Of a stretch of DNA of 64,000 bases, positions 6,858-49,840 are shown in pieces. The DNA lies in contig OY757017.1 in NCBI GenBank assembly GCA_963580285.1, positions 13,156,538 to 13,220,537 of the forward strand. Reading direction: 5' to 3'. The stretch comes from Lucinisca nassula (Eukaryota > Mollusca > Bivalvia > Lucinida > Lucinidae). The notes beneath the pieces were generated by a model that was not told the origin of the DNA, did not search any database, and was given only the letters and a program-made list of their open reading frames with translations. Positions within the stretch are counted from its first letter, which is position 1. The number at the start of each line of letters is the position of its first letter. Made by a program: the position numbers and the translations under genes.

Positions 6858-7090
6858 GGTCGGGCCCCTCTGAGTCTAACTGTTGGTTTTCTTTTGCTCT
6901 AGCAATTCTATTGTTGTGTGCTATCGAGTCCTCAACCTTGTTTCATGTCTGTAGTTTTTTTTATTTGTATGTTCTCGGAGATGTTACACTGATGAGTTAG
7001 GAAGCCTTCATGCGGACTAAACAAAATTAGTGTATACCGCGACAGAAGTAAGGGCAAGGATTATGGCCATGTAAAATCGATTTAAGCCCC
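6858..7090 (+). repeat. Repeat N, left part (split by the 6.1-kb element)
   Basis: Carries the N segments GAGTCTAACTGTTGG, GAGATGTTACACTGATGAG and AAAATCGATTTAAGCCCC, then stops at the element boundary. The remainder of N resumes at 13186. The final AGCCCC (7085-7090) is repeated at 13186-13191 as the target duplication. Confidence 0.9.
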
Positions 7091-7694
7091 AGTAGTATAG
7101 GGGGGCGGTATGGGGACAAAATTATGGGGACAAAATTATGGGGACATTTTGCTGTTTTTGATGTCCCCATAATCCCCATAATTTTGTCCCCATACCGCCC
7201 CCGCTTGATGTAAGCTTGAGTAGGCTAGATTGGGACTTGGGTGGTCGGTAGTGTGTTAGCTGGATACCTTCAGAAATGGACTTAGTGTTTGTGTGGTTTG
7301 ATTTTGTCCCTATAAATTTTCAGTTTTTGAAATTTATAGGGACAAAATCTTTTGACTAAGCCTGAAAATGACTTCGTGTTTGTGTGGTTTGACTTTGTCC
7401 CTATAAATTTGATGTCCCGGAAATTTATAGGGACAAAGCCTTTGACTAAGTCTGAAAATAACTTAGTTTTTTGGTGTTCTTGCAAGTAGATCCATGTGAT
7501 TGTGTCAATTGCCTTTGTCCCTATAAATTTGATGTTTGGTGAAATTATAGGGACAGACGTGTGACTTTGTCCCTATAAATTTGATGTCCCGGAAATTTAT
7601 AGGGACAAAGCCTTTGACTAAGTCTGAAAATGACTTAGTTTTTTGTGATAAACTTTCAAGAGGTCCAGGGATACCACAAGATGACATTATGTTG
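7091..7694 (+). repeat. Left 604-bp terminal inverted repeat
   Basis: Reads as the exact reverse complement of 12582-13185. The outer part (about 7101-7201) folds back on itself: GGGGGCGGTATGGGGAC near 7101 is complemented by GTCCCCATACCGCCCCC near 7200. The inner part (about 7300-7615) repeats TTTGTCCCTATAAATTT and its complement about eight times in facing pairs. Short frames inside are not believable genes. Confidence 0.95.
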
Positions 7695-7945
7695 TTCTTG
7701 TATCTCAAGACTTCATAGTGTCATGCTTATATATTGAGGCTATCTAGTAGCAAGTTTCTATGAGAAATAAAAAATCTTGTATCTCAAGACTTTATATTTC
7801 TTCATCAATAGAAACTTGACTGTCAAGCGTCAAGTGGTTTGGCAAATATATTGAGGCTTGATAGTAGCAAACTTCTGGATATAGATCTTGTATCTCAAGA
7901 TCTATTTTCCATTCATTAGTTTGACTATGAAGCGTCAATGGATGT
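7695..7945. repeat. Short direct repeats beside the left TIR
   Basis: CTTGTATCTCAAGA occurs three times (near 7698, 7773 and 7887), accompanied by AAACTT-type and TGAAGCGTCAA segments, giving a degenerate repeat of roughly 75-115 bases. It lies just inside the TIR, downstream of the gene cluster. Its role is unknown. Confidence 0.6.
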
Positions 7946-8034
7946 TATTTCTAGCCATCTCAAGTTTACATACTACTACCTCTTCGAAATGAAGAGGGGT
8001 GAAAAGACAAGAAAGATTGGTGAACAGTTTTAAC

Positions 8035-8040
8035 TTTATT
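8035..8040 (-). terminator. Polyadenylation signal for the zinc-finger gene
   Basis: AATAAA on the minus strand about 75 bases past the stop codon at 8117. It is the only such hexamer in a sensible position. Confidence 0.5.
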
Positions 8041-8116
8041 TGCCCCGCTAACTAACTTAATTACGATGAACAGAGGATTAGGACCGTCCCTCTGTCCTCG
8101 TTTACAATTTGAAACC

Positions 8117-8827
8117 TTAACGTTGTTGTGAAATTGGTTTTAATAATGTCTTTTGATTTGTCTGTGGCACAGTCTCTTCTTCCTCGTCATAGGTAGGTGA
8201 ATCATATTCATCCAGTGTCTTCTCAAAGAGAAATCTGCGTTTCTTGATGGCACAGTCCATGGATTCGTCTGCATCGTAATCTTTCTCCTCCCTCAGTCGT
8301 TTTGCTGTGCTTATGATTTTCTTATGCACTGGATCTTTCTTCAGTGCTTCTGAATATCCAACCAATGTTCTGTAGAAGTTTACAAGCCCCTGTGTATATC
8401 TTGGTTTGAGTTCCTCATATGCCAAATTTTCAGCAGCTTCTGTGTCGATATCAGTATGTTCTGCCAAAGCTTCTTCCACGGTCTCATTGAATGTATCTTG
8501 TAAGGTTTCCTGGGTTTTCATAACCATTCGATCCCACGGTCTGTACTTAGATTTCATTTTTTTCTTTTTGGGTATCTCAACTTCGTCATCACTATCATCT
8601 TCTTCGGTGTATTCTTCAGAATCATTGGTATAGTCATATTTTCCAAATATATCTTCTCCTTTTCCCAAATTATAGCGTGGGCTTGAAGACGCTACACTTT
8701 CTTCGTCATCTGACATATCTGTTTTATCCTCTTTACAAACACCACTGGATCTATGTCTTCTCAAACTGTCAGATCTTGCAAACTCTCGAAAACACTTATG
8801 GCATTGATATCTCCCCATGGATGTCAA
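8117..8827 (-). CDS. Single zinc-finger (CCHC type) protein of the TIR element, 236 aa
   Basis: Last of three minus-strand genes in the 6.1-kb element. Residues 8-30 form one finger, Cys-X2-Cys-X12-His-X5-Cys, where a Cys replaces the last His of a C2H2 finger. Residues 34-90 are acidic and serine-rich, followed by a basic patch (PKKKKMKSK) that could be a nuclear signal. A helical, charged region with LKKDPVHKK follows, and the C-terminus is acidic. No enzyme motif is seen. A DNA- or packaging-related role is inference only. Position 8827 is used as the start; the second Met (residue 4, at 8818) is also possible because the TATA box is only ~34 bases upstream and would leave a very short leader. 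From memory, similar single-finger proteins occur beside relatives of the 285-aa protein in other invertebrate genomes; this needs a search. Confidence 0.85.
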   Translation of the reverse strand: MTSMGRYQCHKCFREFARSDSLRRHRSSGVCKEDKTDMSDDEESVASSSPRYNLGKGEDIFGKYDYTNDSEEYTEEDDSDDEVEIPKKKKMKSKYRPWDRMVMKTQETLQDTFNETVEEALAEHTDIDTEAAENLAYEELKPRYTQGLVNFYRTLVGYSEALKKDPVHKKIISTAKRLREEKDYDADESMDCAIKKRRFLFEKTLDEYDSPTYDEEEETVPQTNQKTLLKPISQQR

Positions 8828-8841
8828 ATAATGAACTGATT

Positions 8842-8847
8842 TTTATT
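8842..8847 (-). terminator. Polyadenylation signal for the basic-protein gene
   Basis: AATAAA on the minus strand, 40 bases beyond the stop codon at 8887. It lies between the next gene's TATA box and its start codon, so the end of one transcription unit overlaps the start of the next. Confidence 0.6.
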
Positions 8848-8860
8848 CAGTCTTGTCATT

Positions 8861-8869
8861 CCTTTTATA
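8861..8869 (-). promoter_or_regulatory. TATA box of the zinc-finger gene
   Basis: TATAAAAGG on the minus strand, ~34 bases before the ATG at 8827. A strong match to the eukaryotic TATA consensus. Confidence 0.65.
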
Positions 8870-8886
8870 CTCTTCCACAAAACTTT

Positions 8887-9276
8887 CTAACTTTCTGCAC
8901 AATTTTCTGCAACTGTCTGTGACTGTTTGTCTTCACTTTTTCTTTTACGCTTGATATTCTTTAGTGGTAAAGACGTAGGTCTCCTGGGAGTATCAGGCCA
9001 GTGTTGTTTCATTTTTCTTCTTGGTTCAGCCAGACGACGTCTTTTCGGATGTCTTGTTTTCGCAAGTTGTTGGATTTCTGCGTTACATATTTTGCAGAAT
9101 CTGGAGGGCCGTCCTTCCCTGAGCTTATTGCTGAGAACTGTGTTCAGTCTTTTCATCAAGTACCGCATCTGTCCATAACTTGTTTCGTATTTACTAGGGT
9201 TTTGTGTCACTGGTAACTTTTTGCATTTGACCATCTTTTTGCAGGATGTTTTTGTCTGTTTCTCTGAACTAACCAT
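8887..9276 (-). CDS. Small, highly basic protein of the TIR element, 129 aa
   Basis: Middle gene of the cluster, 42 bases after the 285-aa gene and 59 bases before the zinc-finger gene. It is rich in Lys and Arg throughout, with clusters HPKRRRLAEPRRK and KNIKRKRKSE, and one Cys pair (CKIC). There is no signal peptide or membrane segment. The composition resembles nucleic-acid condensing or virion core proteins, but no family was recognised. The start ATG lies ~54 bases downstream of a TATA box. Nuclear localisation is likely from the basic clusters (inference). Confidence 0.75.
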   Translation of the reverse strand: MVSSEKQTKTSCKKMVKCKKLPVTQNPSKYETSYGQMRYLMKRLNTVLSNKLREGRPSRFCKICNAEIQQLAKTRHPKRRRLAEPRRKMKQHWPDTPRRPTSLPLKNIKRKRKSEDKQSQTVAENCAES

Positions 9277-9318
9277 CTTATTTCCTTTCAGGAGTCTGAT
9301 AAACTGACAAAGTTAGTA

Positions 9319-10176
9319 TTAATGCAGAGTATTTATATCATGTTGAAAAAACTGTTTGTGTCTAAAGTGTAATTTAACCAAAGATTTTCCAGTCATAAAA
9401 GGTACACTTTTACCAGTGGCTGTTTTTATGCTGATATGAACTTGGTCAATGAAAGATTTGGCTACTGGCACATAGTGCAAATTTTTTAGTTCTGTATGAA
9501 AATAAGTAGAATACTTGGTATGATTAAATGGAACAATTCTCAAAATCGGTGCCTTCACATCACCAACATTTGTAAAATCTGCAATATCTGAATATATGAA
9601 AAACGTATCATGTGGAGCATTAAAAATAAATGAATCTTTTTCATTCCCAATAGGTTTTCCGAATAGAGAAGGATTGAGTCCTAATAACTTTCCAAACTCT
9701 TTGGAAAATTGTAACCTAGTTTGTCTTTCATCTTGACAAATTATTTTCATGCGTTTAGAATTTTCATCAAACACAACTCCAATGCCAACATTTACATGTT
9801 CTAATAATCCGTTCTCAAACGCATTGATAGAAGATTGCATTTCTTGTGCCAAATGACTGGGAGAAACATAATTGCCAGGTGGAATGATCAGTTTAACTTT
9901 GTCACATGCATTAGTATTTCTACACATTTCAGTGACATTTTCGAAACCGTGTCTTCTTATGTAGCTTGGATCAAGAAAAACCAAATAGAAAAAGTTATTT
10001 TCTTCACTGATGTTCAGCACTTGTGCTGAAGTCATAATTTCTACTAATGCAACTTCCCAGTTTTCTTCATTGATATTAATTGGATGATCTAGTCTCGCCG
10101 TAAAACTGTTTTGTTTGTTTGTTGGAAAAATGTCCAAGGAACTGTCACTTAGCAGTGTAAGGTAGAAGTCGTTCAT
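9319..10176 (-). CDS. Conserved-looking 285-aa protein of the TIR element, function unknown
   Basis: First and longest gene of the cluster. The N-terminus reads FYLTLLSDSS, then a hydrophobic/polar alternating region with NWEVALVEIM near residues 40-50. The rest looks beta-rich, with segments KLIIPPGNYVSP, LQFSKEFGKLLGLN and VHISIKTATGK. There is no signal peptide, transmembrane helix or catalytic motif. I recall proteins with this FYLTL...WEVAL.EI start as uncharacterised proteins of cnidarian, arthropod and mollusc genomes linked to virus-like elements, but could not check this. A structural (virion-associated) role is possible but unproven. The frame is intact and a TATA box lies 56 bases upstream. 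Confidence 0.88.
   Translation of the reverse strand: MNDFYLTLLSDSSLDIFPTNKQNSFTARLDHPININEENWEVALVEIMTSAQVLNISEENNFFYLVFLDPSYIRRHGFENVTEMCRNTNACDKVKLIIPPGNYVSPSHLAQEMQSSINAFENGLLEHVNVGIGVVFDENSKRMKIICQDERQTRLQFSKEFGKLLGLNPSLFGKPIGNEKDSFIFNAPHDTFFIYSDIADFTNVGDVKAPILRIVPFNHTKYSTYFHTELKNLHYVPVAKSFIDQVHISIKTATGKSVPFMTGKSLVKLHFRHKQFFQHDINTLH
9330..9337 (-). promoter_or_regulatory. TATA box of the basic-protein gene
   Basis: TATAAATA on the minus strand ~54 bases before the ATG at 9276. It lies inside the 3' end of the upstream gene's coding region. Confidence 0.6.
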
Positions 10177-10231
10177 TATTCAGGTGTGGCGTCTGATCGG
10201 GGCCCACAATGTTTAACAATGTCCCGCTGAA

Positions 10232-10241
10232 TATTTATATA
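10232..10241 (-). promoter_or_regulatory. TATA box of the 285-aa gene
   Basis: TATATAAATA on the minus strand, about 56 bases before the ATG at 10176. With the two boxes downstream it shows one promoter per gene. Confidence 0.65.
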
Positions 10242-10244
10242 CTT

Positions 10245-11337
10245 TCTTTTCCACAGAATGACAGTGTTTCAGTTGTGCATTTCAGTCATTTCTTAAGCAA
10301 CACAAATTTAAAGTTACAATTATTATTCAATATCGTTATAAAAAAGTTAGTTTTCTTTTTTCTTACTATTTATAATTATCGGAAAACCAATCTTTTTTTT
10401 CCGGGAATTGGCTACTTTCAAATTCAATGGACAAAAATCGCTATTGATCGATTTTCGGAAAATCCAATGACCTGACATTTAATGGGAATGCGGTACCTTC
10501 GATATATATTCATAGTTTGTTAGTTATGGCGATACTAATAAGAAAATGATAAAGTAAATAACCAAAGTTATATCTAGAGCCCCCTTAAGAACATGATTTA
10601 GCGTTTAAAACGCCTTTATAAATATCCACTCTGAGCATTTTGTCTTATTGGGTTTTTCCCAATAGGAATTCTCAAAATAGTAACAGATAAAAAATGATAA
10701 AAAATCAGTATCATTTTGCTATTTGTAGCTCAAATGGGATCAAATATTTTTTTTCGAAAAAAATATAATACAAGCTTATAAATTTATGCATCACTCATAG
10801 AACATAGTCTTTCTTTTCTTAAATTTAAAACAAAAATTTTCATTTGGAAATTCATCAAAACCATTTTCTTATCAAATTGGTTTGGGGTAGACTATATATA
10901 CAAAGTGGTTTCTTGTTACAAACAGGCTAGTGCTCTAGCTTACTGGTGCATGGTTTGTGATTATTGCATTGCGTGTTTTTCCGGCTTGGTCCAAAGATGC
11001 GAGATTATCGAATATATGCTTAAACAGAGTAGAAGGTAGCTACGCTCAGGCTACTTTAAGGGGATCCACGGACATTGGAAAGCCTCCGCTCTGGGAATCA
11101 CTCTGGTCCATAGAGACATTCAGGTGGTTCTAAAGTGTATTCGAGATAATCTCAAATCGCCAGGAGTCCCAAGTTGCAGGGAAACCCATTAATGCAATTC
11201 ACAACCACACTAGGGAGGTTGTTTGCCATCAGAGGTGGCATCTAATTCTCTTGTTCTTTTTTCCCATAAACAGCTTGGTCCTACCAAAGTTATCTTAAGT
11301 TATATACCTGCCACCGGCCAGGTAATAAGAGTCAAAT
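10245..11337. other. Non-coding part of the TIR element
   Basis: No frame longer than about 90 codons and none convincing. The first 600 bases are AT-rich. The rest (about 10930-11290) has balanced composition and no internal repeats, so an untranslated RNA or a control region is possible. Nothing here was recognised. Confidence 0.5.
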
Positions 11338-12440
11338 TGTTCCATGTGTAGATGTGGACGTGTGGAATCTCCGCATTGTGGATCCACATTCTCCGCATCA
11401 CATCCACATTGGGCATTTCAAGCTGAGTCTTAGAAGCCAGAAAGGCCTGGTTGCAATATTGCCGAATGTATAGATGTGGACATGTGGAATCTCCACATTG
11501 TGGATCCACATTCTCCACATTACATCCACATTACATCCACAATTTCAATGTGGAGATGTAGAGGTTCCACAATTTCGATGTGGAGGTTACACAATTTGAA
11601 TGTGTAGATGTGGACGTGTGGAATCTCCACTTTGTGGATCCGCATTCTCCACATCACATCCACAATGAGTATTTTAAGCTGAGTCTTAGAAGCCAGAAAG
11701 GCCTTGTTGCAATATAGCCGAATGTGTAGATGTGGACATGTGGAATCTTCACATTGTGGATCCACATTCTCCACATTACATCCACATTACATCCACAATT
11801 TCAATGTGGAGATGTGGAGGTTCCACAATTTCTATGTGGAGGTTACACAATTTCAATGTGTAGATGTGGACGTGTGGAATCTCCACTTTGTGGATCCACA
11901 TTCTCCACATCACATCCACAATGAGTATTTTAAGCTGAGTCTTAGAAGCCAGAAAGGCCTGGTTGCAAAATTGCCGAATGTGTAGATGTGGACATGTGGA
12001 ATCTCCACATTGTGGATCCACATTCTCCACATTACATCCACATTTGCTCCACATTACCTCCACAATTTCAATGTGGAGATGTGGAGGTTCCACAATTTCA
12101 ATGTGGAGGTTCCACAATTTCAATGTGTAGATGTGGACGTGTGGAATCTCCACTTTGTGGATCCACATTCTCCACATCACATCCACATAGAGCATTTTAA
12201 TCTGAGACTTAGAAGCAAGAAAGGCCTGGTTGCAAAATTGTCGAATGTGTAGATGTGGACATGTGGAATCTCCACATTGTGGATCCACATTCTCCACATT
12301 ACATCCACATTTGCTCCACATTACCTCCACAATTTCAATGTGGAGATGTGGAGGTTCCACAATTTCAAAGTGGAGGTTCCACAATTTCAATGTGGAGATG
12401 TGGAGATTATACATTTGTGATGTGGAGATGTGGCAGTGAA
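11338..12440. repeat. Satellite inside the TIR element (TGTGGA-rich)
   Basis: About eight half-units of alternating ~120 and ~137 bases, marked by GATGTGGACATGTGGAATCT or its GATGTGGACGTG variant near 11350, 11472, 11609, 11728, 11864, 11984, 12130 and 12249. Units also share AAGCCAGAAAGGCCTGGTTG. CCACATT and its complement AATGTGG recur in facing orientation, so the DNA can fold extensively. Both strands stay open for up to ~210 codons because of the repeat, not because of a gene. Confidence 0.9.
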
Positions 12441-12472
12441 GAGACCATTATATTACATACAAAATATATCTA

Positions 12473-12545
12473 GGCACTTTAGCTCAGTTGGTAGAGCACC
12501 TGTCTGATAAGCAGGAGGTCATAGGTTCGAGCCCTATTCGTGCCA
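12473..12545 (+). tRNA. tRNA-Ile (anticodon GAU)-like gene inside the TIR element
   Basis: The 73-base cloverleaf is complete: D arm GCTC-AGTTGGTA-GAGC, anticodon stem CCTGT/GCAGG with loop CTGATAA (anticodon GAT), variable loop AGGTC, T arm ATAGG-TTCGAGC-CCTAT and discriminator A. Box A (TAGCTCAGTTGG) and box B (GGTTCGAGCCC) are good. The acceptor stem pairs at five of seven positions; the two inner pairs (T-C, T-T) do not match, so activity is uncertain. Animal nuclear genomes mostly decode Ile with AAU and UAU anticodons, so GAU is unusual. It has no SINE body after it, unlike the other tRNA-like heads here. Confidence 0.75.
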
Positions 12546-12581
12546 AACATTTTTTTCAATTTTAAGTTATTTCCAAAAGGC

Positions 12582-13185
12582 CAACATAATGTCATCTTGT
12601 GGTATCCCTGGACCTCTTGAAAGTTTATCACAAAAAACTAAGTCATTTTCAGACTTAGTCAAAGGCTTTGTCCCTATAAATTTCCGGGACATCAAATTTA
12701 TAGGGACAAAGTCACACGTCTGTCCCTATAATTTCACCAAACATCAAATTTATAGGGACAAAGGCAATTGACACAATCACATGGATCTACTTGCAAGAAC
12801 ACCAAAAAACTAAGTTATTTTCAGACTTAGTCAAAGGCTTTGTCCCTATAAATTTCCGGGACATCAAATTTATAGGGACAAAGTCAAACCACACAAACAC
12901 GAAGTCATTTTCAGGCTTAGTCAAAAGATTTTGTCCCTATAAATTTCAAAAACTGAAAATTTATAGGGACAAAATCAAACCACACAAACACTAAGTCCAT
13001 TTCTGAAGGTATCCAGCTAACACACTACCGACCACCCAAGTCCCAATCTAGCCTACTCAAGCTTACATCAAGCGGGGGCGGTATGGGGACAAAATTATGG
13101 GGATTATGGGGACATCAAAAACAGCAAAATGTCCCCATAATTTTGTCCCCATAATTTTGTCCCCATACCGCCCCCCTATACTACT
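12582..13185 (-). repeat. Right 604-bp terminal inverted repeat
   Basis: Exact reverse complement of 7091-7694 as far as read, including all the facing TTTGTCCCTATAAATTT motifs and the terminal fold-back. Lack of divergence indicates recent insertion or ongoing homogenisation. Confidence 0.95.
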
Positions 13186-13470
13186 AGCCCCCCCATTGGA
13201 ATTCTTTCTACTGACCGTTCCAAGGCGATTCTTCTGTGGCGGTTTATTTATGTTGTTGTTTGTTACTTACTGTGTGTATCACTTGTGTCTTTTATTTTGG
13301 ATGGCCATTTGGCCATTTTGTGGGAAAGTAACTGTCCTTATGGCCTTCCTTTGTTTAGGTTTCCATTATGGTCTGGTCGCTTCATATTTGTGTTTCTTTC
13401 CCTTTGGTGTCTTTGATGGGTGGAGTAAGTTAAATGTATCGATTCCTGATCTCTGTTTTACTTCTACGTT
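13186..13470 (+). repeat. Repeat N, right part
   Basis: Starts with the duplicated AGCCCC, then continues repeat N (GGAATTCTTTC, CTGACCGTTCCAAGGCG, TGGCCATTTTGTGGGAAAG, GATTCCTGATC). Joined to 6858-7090 it makes one copy of N. Confidence 0.9.
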
Positions 13471-13507: not shown

Positions 13508-13722
13508 AAAAGGGCTATTCTTTCCCACAAAATGGCCAAACGACTTTTCTTTCCCACAAAATGGCCAAACGACTATTCTTTCCCACAAAATGGCCAAATG
13601 ACTATTCTTTCCCACAAAATGGTCAAACGACTATTCTTTCCCACAAAATGGCCAAACGACTATTCTTTCCCACAAAATGGCCAAACGACTATTCTTTCAC
13701 ACACAATGGCCAAACGACTATC
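13508..13722. repeat. 29-bp minisatellite derived from repeat N
   Basis: About seven units containing CTTTCCCACAAAATGGCCAA. This is the complement of an internal piece of repeat N (GGCCATTTTGTGGGAAAG), so the array grew from an inverted N fragment. Confidence 0.85.
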
Positions 13723-13828
13723 TAAATTAAAAGCTATATTATCTTTATAAATATACTTAGGGACTTTAAAACGCACCACTGTATAGCATGCAATTCTAAG
13801 CGCTTTACCAGTACTCGTGTGCAGTCGG

Positions 13829-14109
13829 CATCACGTGAACAAGTCAGTGAAATGAAGACCCCACTAAACCCCATTTTATATAGAGAAAACTGGGGTTAAC
13901 GGGGGGTATTGATTATTTTTCTTATTTCTGCTCCAAGACATAGGTTGTGGGTACTCGTTAGAACCGCCTCATAGAGGCGGTTCTAACGAGCACACACAAC
14001 CTATGTTATGAGCATTTGTAAGAAAAATATCACAGATTTTCATCAGAAAACTAGCCATTTTGGAGATGAGAAAAAATGCACTATATCGTACGGGTGAGTT
14101 ATCGTAATC
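13829..14109. repeat. Hairpin MITE family B
   Basis: From CATCACGTGAACAAGTC to TGAGTTATCGTAATC. Core arms GTACTCGTTAGAACCGCCTC and complement near 13950-13990. Directly followed by a family A copy. Confidence 0.85.
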
Positions 14110-14150
14110 GGTTTCAGCTCTGCGAGGAAGCAGCATGCAGCCAGAAATGC

Positions 14151-14436
14151 CATTACGAAAACACGCCTATACCAATACATTGTAACCTTCATCGCCGAAA
14201 AAAATGAAAATTTTTTGATGAAAAATTGTGATATTTTTCTTTTTTTCTGCTTAGAATATAAATTGTGGGTACTCGTTAGAACCGCCTCGACGAGGCGGTT
14301 CTTACGAGTTCCCACAATCTATATCTTAGAGCAGATCGAGATATGAAAAATAAGGTTATCCCCTACAAACCCAAGTTTTACTATACAAAAGTGGGGTCCA
14401 AGGGGGTAAAAATTATATAGGCGTGTTTTCGTGATG
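14151..14436. repeat. Hairpin MITE family A
   Basis: From CATTACGAAAACACGCC to GGCGTGTTTTCGTGATG: terminal inverted repeats of about 20 bases. Central palindrome at about 14262-14325 with flanking CTGCTTAGAATATA-type arms. Non-coding. Confidence 0.9.
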
Positions 14437-37804: not shown

Positions 37805-38172
37805 GGAGATGTAACACTGATGAGTTAGGAAGCCTTCATGCGGACTAAACAAAATTAGTGTATACCGCGACAGAGTTAAGGGCGAGGATTATGGCCATGT
37901 AAAATCGATTTAAGCCCCCAGTGGAATTCTTTCCACTGACCGTTCCAAGGCGGTTCTTCTGTGGCGGTTTATTTATGTTGTCGTTTGTTACAACTTACTG
38001 TGTGTATCACTTGTGTCTTTTTATTTTGGATGGCCATTTGGCCATTTTGTGGGAAAGTAACTGTCCTTACGGCCATCCTTTCTCTGGTCGCTTCATGTTT
38101 GTGTTTCTTTCCCTTTGGTGTCTTTGGTGGGTGGAGTAAGTTAATTGTATCGATTCCTGATCTTTGTTTTAC
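37805..38172 (+). repeat. Repeat N, right part; contains the empty site
   Basis: Continues N from GGAGATGTAACACTGATGAG to GATTCCTGATCTTTG. Its AAATCGATTTAAGCCCCCAG (about 37902-37921) is the intact counterpart of the site occupied by the 6.1-kb element at 7091. Confidence 0.88.
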
Positions 38173-38214
38173 TTCTACTTTGGTTGAAACTTGCATCTGG
38201 GGATGAAAACAATA

Positions 38215-47475: not shown

Positions 47476-49840
47476 AACTAGACAAAAGTGCCCAGTGGGG
47501 CACGTATACCCCCGGCCAGTGCCATCACCTCAGCTGAAAATAGCAATGTCAAAAGCTTCTTTGTATATACAGAACTACAAAGGGAAATAACTCTAAAAGG
47601 CCTGACCCCTTGGCCCTTATTTTCTTTCCCATAATACAACTAGTCATACTGATCATGTTTGCAAAATTTCAAGTTTCTATGTACAGTAGTTATTGAGAAA
47701 TCTTTGGCACAAAATAAAAATATACACTATTAAACAGCAAGAACTACAAAGGGAAATAACTCTAAAAGGCCTGACCCCTTGGCCCTTATTTTCTTTCCCA
47801 CAATACAAGTAGTCATACTGATCATGTGAGCAAAATTTCAAGTTTCTATATGAAGCAGTTCCTGAGATATCTTTGACACAAAATAATTGTTTACGGACAC
47901 AAAGACAGAGAACTACAAAGGGAAATAACTCTAAAAGGCCTGACCCCTTGGCCCTTATTTTCTTTCCCACAATACAACTAGTCATACTGATCATGTTTGC
48001 AAAATTTCAAGTTTCTATGTACAGTAGTTATTGAGAAATCTTTGACACAAAATAAAAATATACACTATTAAACAGCAAGAACTACAAAGGGAAATAACTC
48101 TAAAAGGCCTGACCCCTTGGCCCTTATTTTCTTTCCCACAATACAAGTAGTCATACTGATCATGTTTGCAAAATTTCAAGTTTCTATGTACAGTAGTTAT
48201 TGAGAAATCTTTGACACAAAATAAAAATATACACTATTAAACAGCAAGAACTACAAAGGGAAATAACTCTAAAAGGTCTGACCCCTTGGCCCTTATTTTC
48301 TTTCCCACAATACAAGTAGTCATACTGATCATGTGTGCATAATTTCAAGTTTCTATGTGAAGCAGTTCCTGAGATATCTTTGACACAAAATAATTGTTTA
48401 CGGACAGACAGACGGAAAAGACAAAAACTATATACCCCCATTGCATACTTCGTATGCCGGGGGTATAAATATACACTATTAAACAGCAAGAACTACAAAG
48501 GGAAATAACTCTAAAAGGCCTGACCCCTTGGACCTTATTTTCTTTCCCACAATACAAGTAGTCATACTGATCATGTGTGCAAAATTTCAAGTTTCTATGT
48601 GAAGCAGTTCCTGAGATATCTTTGACACAAAATAATTGTTTACAAAAACTACAAAGGGAAATAACTCTAAAAGGCCTGACCCCTTGGCCCTTATTTTCTT
48701 TCCCACAATACAACTAGTCATACTGATCATGTTTGCAAAATTTCAAGTTTCTATGTACAGTAGTTATTGAGAAATCTTTGACACAAAATAAAAATATACA
48801 CTATTAAACAGCAAGAACTACAAAGGGAAATAACTCTAAAAGGCCTGACCCCCTGGCCCTTATTTTCTTTCCCACAATACAACTAGTCATACTGATCATG
48901 TTTGCAAAATTTCAAGTTTCTGTGTACAGTAGTTATTGAGAAATCTTTACACAAAATAAAAAAATATACACTATTAAACAGCAAGAACTACAAAGGGAAA
49001 TAACTCTAAAAGGCCTGACCCCTTGGCCCTTATTTTCTTTCCCACAATACAAGTAGTCATACTGATCATGTGAGCAAAATTTCAAGTTTCTATATGAAGC
49101 AGTTCCTGAGATATCTTTGACACAAAATAATTGTTTACGGACACAAAGACAGAGAACTACAAAGGGAAATAACTCTAAAAGGCCTGACCCCTTGGCCCTT
49201 ATTTTCTTTCCCACAATACAACTAGTCATACTGATCATGTTTGCAAAATTTCAAGTTTCTATGTACAGTAGTTATTGAGAAATCTTTGACACAAAATAAA
49301 AATATACACTATTAAACAGCAAGAACTACAAAGGGAAATAACTCTAAAAGGCCTGACCCCTTGGCCCTTATTTTCTTTCCCACAATACAAGTAGTCATAC
49401 TGATCATGTGTGCAAAATTTCAAGTTTCTATGTGAAGCAGTTCCTGAGATATCTTTGACACAAAATTTACAAAAACTACAAAGGGAAATAACTCTAAAAG
49501 GCCTGACCCCTTGGCCCTTATTTTCTTTCCCACAATACAAGTAGTCATACTGATCATGTGTGCAAAATTTCAAGTTTCTATGTGAAGCAGTTCCTGAGAT
49601 ATCTTTGACACAAAATTTACAAAAACTACAAAGGGAAATAACTCTAAAAGGCCTGACCCCTTGGCCCTTATTTTCTTTCCCACAATACAAGTAGTCATAC
49701 TGATCATGTGTGCAAAATTTCAAGTTTCTATGTGAAGCAGTTCCTGAGATATCTTTGACACAAAATAATTGTTTACGGACAGACGGAAAAGACAAAAACT
49801 ATATACCCCCATGGCATACTTCGTATGCCGGGGGTATAAT
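47476..49840 (+). mobile_element. Tandem-core element F, about 13 units
   Basis: Left end ACAAAAGTGCCCAGTGGGGC with a CGTATACCCCC stretch. Core of 13 units of ~140-240 bases, each starting ACTACAAAGGGAAATAACTC and containing ACTGATCATGT and CAAAATTTCAAGTTTCTATG. Right end is the palindrome GGCATACTTCGTATGCC with CCGGGGGTATAA; a copy of that end also occurs inside at about 48425-48470, so a second element has fused or recombined in. Minus-strand frames of 100-178 codons are repeat artefacts. Lies in the last intron of the VWC gene. Confidence 0.85.

What the first reader, a model, noticed from the sequence alone, without database searches (positions are those of the whole stretch)
7091..13185. 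Recent 6.1-kb virus-like TIR element with a demonstrable empty site
Exact boundaries can be read: 604-bp inverted repeats that look identical, a 6-bp AGCCCC duplication, and a second copy of the host repeat near 37909-37930 without the insertion. It carries only three small genes plus a large non-coding half. The 6-bp duplication, long TIRs and 5'-AG start agree with Polinton/Maverick elements, but all hallmark Polinton genes are missing. It may be a satellite or cargo-only derivative that depends on a full-length relative, or a separate lineage of virus-derived elements. The TIRs appear undecayed, so it moved recently.
Basis: partly seen in the sequence, partly recalled or inferred. Interest (0 to 1): 0.92.

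Follow-up and report, generated by a model that had tools for sequence, protein, structure and literature searches.

The report
Polinton satellite with own penton
This is one copy of a common 5-7 kb virus-like satellite in an animal genome that lacks the genes to copy or move itself, wears the same ends as 18-kb Polintons in that genome, and keeps its own distinct capsid-corner gene, a tRNA and a candidate structured RNA.

Summary
In detail: 7091-13185, 604-bp perfect inverted repeats, AGCCCC duplication, paralogous empty site at 37805-38181. The genome is an animal's (wnt genes) and holds at least 40 copies of the 2.2-kb gene block at 95% or more. Of 26 copies examined, 24 show 6-bp duplications and AGTAGTATAGGG ends. 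The element's two end modules match 18.6-kb elements at 97-98%; those encode an adenain-like protease and their own penton, so they look like Polintons. "All hallmark genes missing" is wrong: the 285-aa protein is a penton by fold, 44% identical to the long element's and in a separate clade. All three genes show purifying selection (pN/pS 0.21-0.47). So this is an old satellite lineage, not a fresh deletion product. Near-identical cores carry very different repeats, and repeats are shared with 18-kb elements, which points to end exchange with helpers. It also has a strongly folding 160-nt segment, a tandem array, a tRNA-Ile(GAU) and a terminal DNA hairpin. Helper polymerase and integrase, mobilisation and packaging were not shown. 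My open-access searches listed no published description.

The parts
7085..7090 (.). left copy of the 6-bp target duplication AGCCCC
7091..7694 (+). left terminal inverted repeat, 604 bp perfect
7101..7202 (.). terminal DNA hairpin just inside the 10-nt tip (mirrored at 13074-13175)
   Evidence: z -14.2; terminal stem in 28 of 29 ends
7091..8121 (.). left end module shared with the 18.6-kb elements (98.3-98.4%); stops at the zinc-finger gene's stop codon
   Evidence: L005, L006
8117..8827 (-). 236-aa C2H2 zinc-finger protein
   Evidence: intact in 22 of 26 copies, pN/pS 0.469
8887..9276 (-). 129-aa basic protein, function unknown
   Evidence: intact in 24 of 26 copies, pN/pS 0.209
9319..10176 (-). 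285-aa penton (single jelly-roll vertex capsid protein, Polinton PX)
   Evidence: intact in 19 of 26 copies, pN/pS 0.295
10998..11158 (+). candidate structured non-coding RNA, about 160 nt
   Evidence: z -4.1, 0 of 200 shuffles as good; lowest diversity window; no covariation
11340..12404 (.). tandem array, unit 256-267 bp, about 4 copies
12473..12545 (+). tRNA-Ile(GAU) gene
   Evidence: same anticodon in 22 of 26 copies and 3 of 3 long-element ends of that side
12444..13185 (.). right end module shared with the 18.6-kb elements (97.2-97.4%), includes the tRNA
   Evidence: L002, L003, L004
12582..13185 (-). right terminal inverted repeat, 604 bp perfect
13186..13191 (.). right copy of the 6-bp target duplication AGCCCC
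37805..38181 (+). paralogous empty site (host repeat without the insertion)

Best explanation
It is a satellite of Polintons. Shown: a 4.3-kb core of its own (three genes, a candidate structured RNA, a tandem array) sits between end modules that match those of 18-kb Polinton-like elements in the same genome (inverted repeat plus about 420 bp on the left; inverted repeat plus a tRNA block on the right). Inferred: the helper's integrase reads the AGTAGTATAGGG/hairpin ends and inserts the element with a 6-bp duplication, and the helper's protein-primed polymerase copies it from the ends. Inferred: the satellite keeps pace with different helpers by recombining in the shared end modules, after which panhandle pairing during replication copies the new repeat to the other end. 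Inferred, less sure: it is packaged in helper-built capsids, and its own penton, zinc-finger and basic proteins act at the vertex or on packaging so that its 5-7 kb genome is favoured.
For: Shared ends and unrelated interior with 18.6-kb elements. Long elements carry a protease-like gene and their own penton in 29 of 35 intervals. 24 of 26 copies with 6-bp duplications. Penton fold, 44% to the helper's, separate clade. Purifying selection on all three genes. Core/repeat conflict among copies and repeats shared with 18-kb pairs in two further classes, one of them only in part. Largest frame is 285 aa, so no integrase or polymerase fits.
Against: Core and repeat identity still correlate (Spearman 0.48), so part of the repeat diversity may be ordinary descent. 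The third class matches 18-kb elements at 97% over 254 of 454 nt only. The penton lies near the same end and on the same strand as the long element's, so an origin by old internal loss from a Polinton is likely. Nothing shows transcription, particles or packaging.
Confidence: 0.72

Rival explanations
1. It is a recent internal-deletion derivative of the 18.6-kb Polinton, an ordinary non-autonomous copy whose genes are leftovers.
For: Both ends match the long element, and the penton lies near the same end and on the same strand in both.
Against: Penton only 44% identical and in a separate, well-supported clade with relatives from elsewhere; no DNA match over 100 bp inside the end modules of the pieces read; genes mostly intact and under purifying selection.
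Confidence: 0.1
2. The repeats were never exchanged: they simply evolve fast by slippage and palindrome turnover, and the match of some satellites to long elements is shared ancestry.
For: The repeats are internally repetitive; core and repeat identity correlate at Spearman 0.48; the identity measure uses one ungapped-block alignment over the first 450 nt and understates likeness across large indels.
Against: The window's repeat is 99.8-100% identical to that of 18.6-kb elements with unrelated interiors, while copies with cores of 99% carry repeats alike over 60-70%. L036 has a core 99.55% like L024 but a repeat like L038's.
Confidence: 0.1
3. It is a small independent virus or transposon lineage that moves without a helper.
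For: Its genes are conserved, it is abundant and recently active.
Against: No integrase, polymerase, ATPase or major capsid gene fits: the largest frame is 285 aa. Repeats nearly identical to the long elements' beside pentons of 44% are not what independent descent gives.
Confidence: 0.04

Closest known systems
Polinton/Maverick elements (adintovirus-like)
   Same: 6-bp target duplications, long inverted repeats beginning AG, a penton of the PX kind (PMC4028283 passages)
   Different: About one third of the usual length; no polymerase, integrase, ATPase, protease or major capsid gene
Virophages (mavirus, Sputnik) and polinton-like viruses that depend on giant viruses
   Same: Small satellite-like DNA element of the same capsid lineage; penton fold nearest to mavirus penton
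   Different: Virophages carry their own major capsid, ATPase and protease genes; here the presumed helper is a Polinton, not a giant virus, and only the penton is kept
Phage satellites such as P4 with helper P2 (recalled, no call)
   Same: Satellite about one third of the helper's length, helper-matched ends, own genes that act on the helper's capsid
   Different: Animal genome, inverted-repeat ends with 6-bp duplications; no capsid-size gene was shown
Non-autonomous DNA transposons (MITE-like)
   Same: Presumably mobilised in trans through shared terminal repeats
   Different: Conserved protein-coding core under purifying selection
tRNA genes and other ncRNA in polinton-like viruses (PMC12220804 passages)
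   Same: tRNA genes inside such elements are known in protists
   Different: Here a tRNA-Ile(GAU) sits beside the repeat in satellites and long elements of an animal

Membership tests
Polinton/Maverick (autonomous) | 6-bp target duplication | tested here: met
   24 of 26 copies
Polinton/Maverick (autonomous) | long inverted repeats beginning AG | tested here: met
   604 bp, AGTAGTATAGGG
Polinton/Maverick (autonomous) | protein-primed DNA polymerase B | tested here: not met
   largest frame 285 aa; none of the three proteins matches
Polinton/Maverick (autonomous) | RVE integrase | tested here: not met
   no match among the three proteins
Polinton/Maverick (autonomous) | major capsid protein and packaging ATPase | tested here: not met
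   only three frames above 100 aa outside repeats, none matching
Polinton/Maverick (autonomous) | penton (PX) | tested here: met
Polinton/Maverick: the 18-kb relatives | polymerase B and integrase | tested here: inconclusive
   69 best-scored PolB places of 2025 candidates, none in 35 intervals
Polinton/Maverick: the 18-kb relatives | adenain-like protease and penton | tested here: met
   Peptidase_C5 19.4 bits, just under the cut-off of 21.3; penton in 29 of 35 intervals
virophage (Lavidaviridae type) | own major capsid protein, ATPase, protease | tested here: not met
satellite of a DNA virus | sequence ends shared with a fuller relative, interior its own | tested here: met
satellite of a DNA virus | dependence on the helper for copying, movement or packaging | not testable with these tools
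   needs experiment
internal-deletion (MITE-like) derivative | core is a recent remnant of the parent | tested here: not met
   penton 44% and separate clade; most of the parent's interior was not read

The most novel reading that the evidence does not exclude
Animal Polintons support a lineage of true virus satellites that travel in Polinton virions, change helper by swapping ends, and bring their own vertex protein, DNA-binding protein and a structured RNA (by analogy with adenovirus VA RNA, recalled) to redirect the helper's assembly or the host's response. This would be indirect evidence that Polintons form virions in a living animal.
Probability: 0.35. Interest if true: 0.93.

Novelty: new variant of a known kind. 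Interest (0 to 1): 0.8.

Why it matters
Whether animal Polintons still make virus particles is an open question (recalled). A satellite that has kept a capsid-vertex gene under selection for long enough to form its own clade, while wearing whatever ends the local Polintons have, is hard to explain unless Polinton capsids matter to its spread. Many copies in one animal genome, with an empty site, matched 18-kb relatives and several repeat classes, make the question testable. It also suggests how a satellite can follow its helpers: constant core, exchangeable ends.

Tried and rejected
Led nowhere: relatives of the penton or the zinc-finger protein in viral contigs and of the penton in genome contigs: none confirmed. 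PHROGs gave only matches with E 0.08 or worse for the three proteins. Rfam on the non-coding half gave nothing near a family's own cut-off but the tRNA. Covariation for the 160-nt RNA: none; the few changes in other copies mostly break single pairs, so the RNA rests on folding energy and conservation alone; the minus strand of 10990-11340 does not fold better than shuffles. PolB places and penton places never fell within 20 kb of each other, but both lists hold only the best scored.

Considered and rejected: a joined-flank pattern with up to 3 mismatches found no empty site, because the paralogue differs by more; the alignment settles it.

Literature: searches over the open-access library listed no report that by title or start of abstract describes a Polinton satellite or a non-autonomous Polinton with its own penton; only the best rows of each were shown. 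I saw passages of PMC4028283, PMC11071308, PMC10120064 and PMC12220804; other papers as listings only. Subscription papers and Repbase were not searched.
Full report
Observation. The element spans 7091-13185 exactly. Its perfect inverted repeat is 604 bp (609 bp with the extension), flanked by AGCCCC on both sides. The two host flanks, joined with one duplication kept, match 37805-38181 across the junction (397 columns, 89.9%), so the pre-insertion state is visible in the same window. The window lies in a 2.93-Gb assembly with 37 wnt matches over the family cut-off, hence an animal.

Copies. A search with the repeat returned pairs about 6 kb apart and pairs mostly 18.5-19.6 kb apart. A search with the 2.2-kb gene block gave 40 near full-length matches at 95-100%, all that were scored, out of 725 first-look candidates, so 40 is a lower bound. 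I examined 26 copies including the window. 24 of 26 have an exact 6-bp duplication beside matching termini that begin AGTAGTATAGGG, with lengths of 5.0-6.9 kb. L026 and L040 gave no pair of ends.

Long relatives. End pieces of long elements on C5 (both ends), C6, C15 and C19 were read. One end matches window 7091-8121 at 98.3-98.4% (L005, L006). The other matches 13185-12444 at 97.2-97.4%, including the tRNA (L002, L003, L004). Inside these limits no further match over 100 bp was seen. Just inside the left-type end the long element encodes a protein with an adenovirus-endoprotease pattern (Peptidase_C5, 19.4 bits against a cut-off of 21.3; weak matches to the S273R and adenovirus proteases in the PDB, E 0.05-0.3). 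I took 35 intervals between opposite repeats (17.9-41.2 kb, mostly 18-19 kb). A search with a distant penton scored 121 places, most in open frames of 289-304 aa. 29 of the 35 intervals hold one, in nearly all about 4 kb from one end. One was fetched (L042). These are Polinton features. Polymerase B is abundant in the genome (2025 candidates; many scored frames are open over about 1,400 aa), but none of the 69 best-scored places falls in the 35 intervals. So the polymerase and integrase of the matched long elements remain unseen.

The other genes. The 236-aa protein has a C2H2 zinc finger (20.9 bits, below the 25.2 cut-off) and 107 relatives; the finger and the C-terminal region are conserved. 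The 129-aa protein has 3 relatives. Some penton and zinc-finger relatives have the same longest-contig length (470916: P0003 and P0123; 472998: P0019 and P0117; 2196348: P0030 and P0162), and a zinc-finger and a 129-aa relative share 1605 (P0067 and P0174). This suggests that the genes travel together elsewhere (inference from length alone).

Selection. Over all 325 pairs of 26 copies, pN/pS is 0.295 (penton), 0.209 (129 aa) and 0.469 (zinc finger); codons with gaps or stops were dropped. Frames are intact in 19, 24 and 22 of 26 copies. Copies share ancestry, so pairs are not independent.

End exchange. For the 24 copies with defined ends, core identity and repeat identity conflict. The 169 of 276 pairs with core over 98.8% have identical repeat fractions from 0 to 0.996 (median 0.54; best single alignment over the first 450 nt, which understates likeness across indels). 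L036 is 99.55% to L024 in the core with a repeat fraction of 0.13, yet its repeat is 0.964 to L038, whose core is only 97.1%. The two measures still correlate (Spearman 0.48), so exchange is not the whole story. The window's repeat is shared at 99.8-100% with long elements. The repeat of L036 matches both ends of pairs 18.2-18.3 kb apart on C1 and C7 at 97%, and other pairs at 83-97%. That of L024 matches pairs 18.3-19.0 kb apart at 97% over 254 of 454 nt, or 77-81% over nearly the whole. So satellites share repeats with 18-kb elements in two classes clearly and in a third in part.

Terminal hairpin. After a 10-nt tip the window's end can fold into a long DNA hairpin (-52.4 kcal/mol, z -14.2). 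A terminal stem is predicted in 28 of 29 ends: 23 of 24 satellites and 5 of 5 long-element ends, including ends whose sequence differs from the window's; L032 is the miss. The shape is kept while the letters change, as expected of a recognition or repair structure; copying of one arm from the other could give the same picture.

Non-coding half. The stretch 10998-11158 folds far better than shuffles on the + strand (-53.8 against -37.5 kcal/mol, z -4.1, 0 of 200 as good). It contains the least variable 100-bp window of the part of the core analysed, 8122 to about 11250 (0.0042, against 0.047-0.048 at 10722-10921). There is no covariation to prove the structure. All 40 scored genome matches to this stretch are 99-100% (286 candidates). 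A 256-267-bp tandem array follows. The tRNA-Ile(GAU) (63.5 bits) is called with that anticodon in 22 of 26 copies (L023 reads AAU, L012 is unclear, L013 and L039 have none) and in all 3 long-element end pieces of that side. Of 40 scored matches to the tRNA block, 13 lie within 20 kb of a long-element penton. From recall, animals read isoleucine with IAU and UAU tRNAs and lack GAU, which makes this tRNA odd.

Mechanism. The anatomy fits a satellite: helper-matched ends for integration and copying, and a private core. The penton lies near the same end and on the same strand in satellite and long element, so the satellite probably arose long ago from a Polinton by loss of the replication and major capsid genes. 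The step from shared ends to use of helper integrase and polymerase is inference from the known biology of Polintons (recalled, and PMC4028283 passages). Packaging is a further inference, from the selected penton and from a genome size close to one third of the helper's. The retained vertex gene is the strongest hint that capsids matter.

Novelty. In the open-access library I found no description of a Polinton satellite in animals. tRNA genes in polinton-like viruses are known (PMC12220804, passages). The parts are known kinds; the combination is new as far as I could see. I file it as a new variant of a known kind.

Noticed in passing
window 13509-13750: Host minisatellite with a 29-bp unit just outside the right end of the element (family D2).
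   Followed up: no
window 13927-14335: Two 65-nt palindromic repeats, 85% alike, within an 88-bp inverted pair 233 bp apart (D10 and I4).
   Followed up: no
window 48345-49798: Tandemly repeated open frames on the minus strand with a repeated 'FCVKDISGTASHRNLKFCTHDQYDYLYCGKENKGQGVRPFRVISLCS' unit; looks like a coding-looking satellite repeat.
   Followed up: no
L005 2110-3608: Open frame resembling a reverse transcriptase/integrase retroelement beside the 18.6-kb element on C5, outside its right end (by eye, not searched).
   Followed up: no
own genome: Over 2,000 polymerase-B candidates, many of the scored ones in uninterrupted frames of about 1,425 aa: this genome may hold many recently active Polintons of other families.
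   Followed up: partly
window 9319-10176: The window's penton is 285 aa where most other copies read 289 aa; the frame stays open.
   Followed up: yes
L004 2229-2837: Tandem repeat frame in the host flank of the long element on C6.
   Followed up: no
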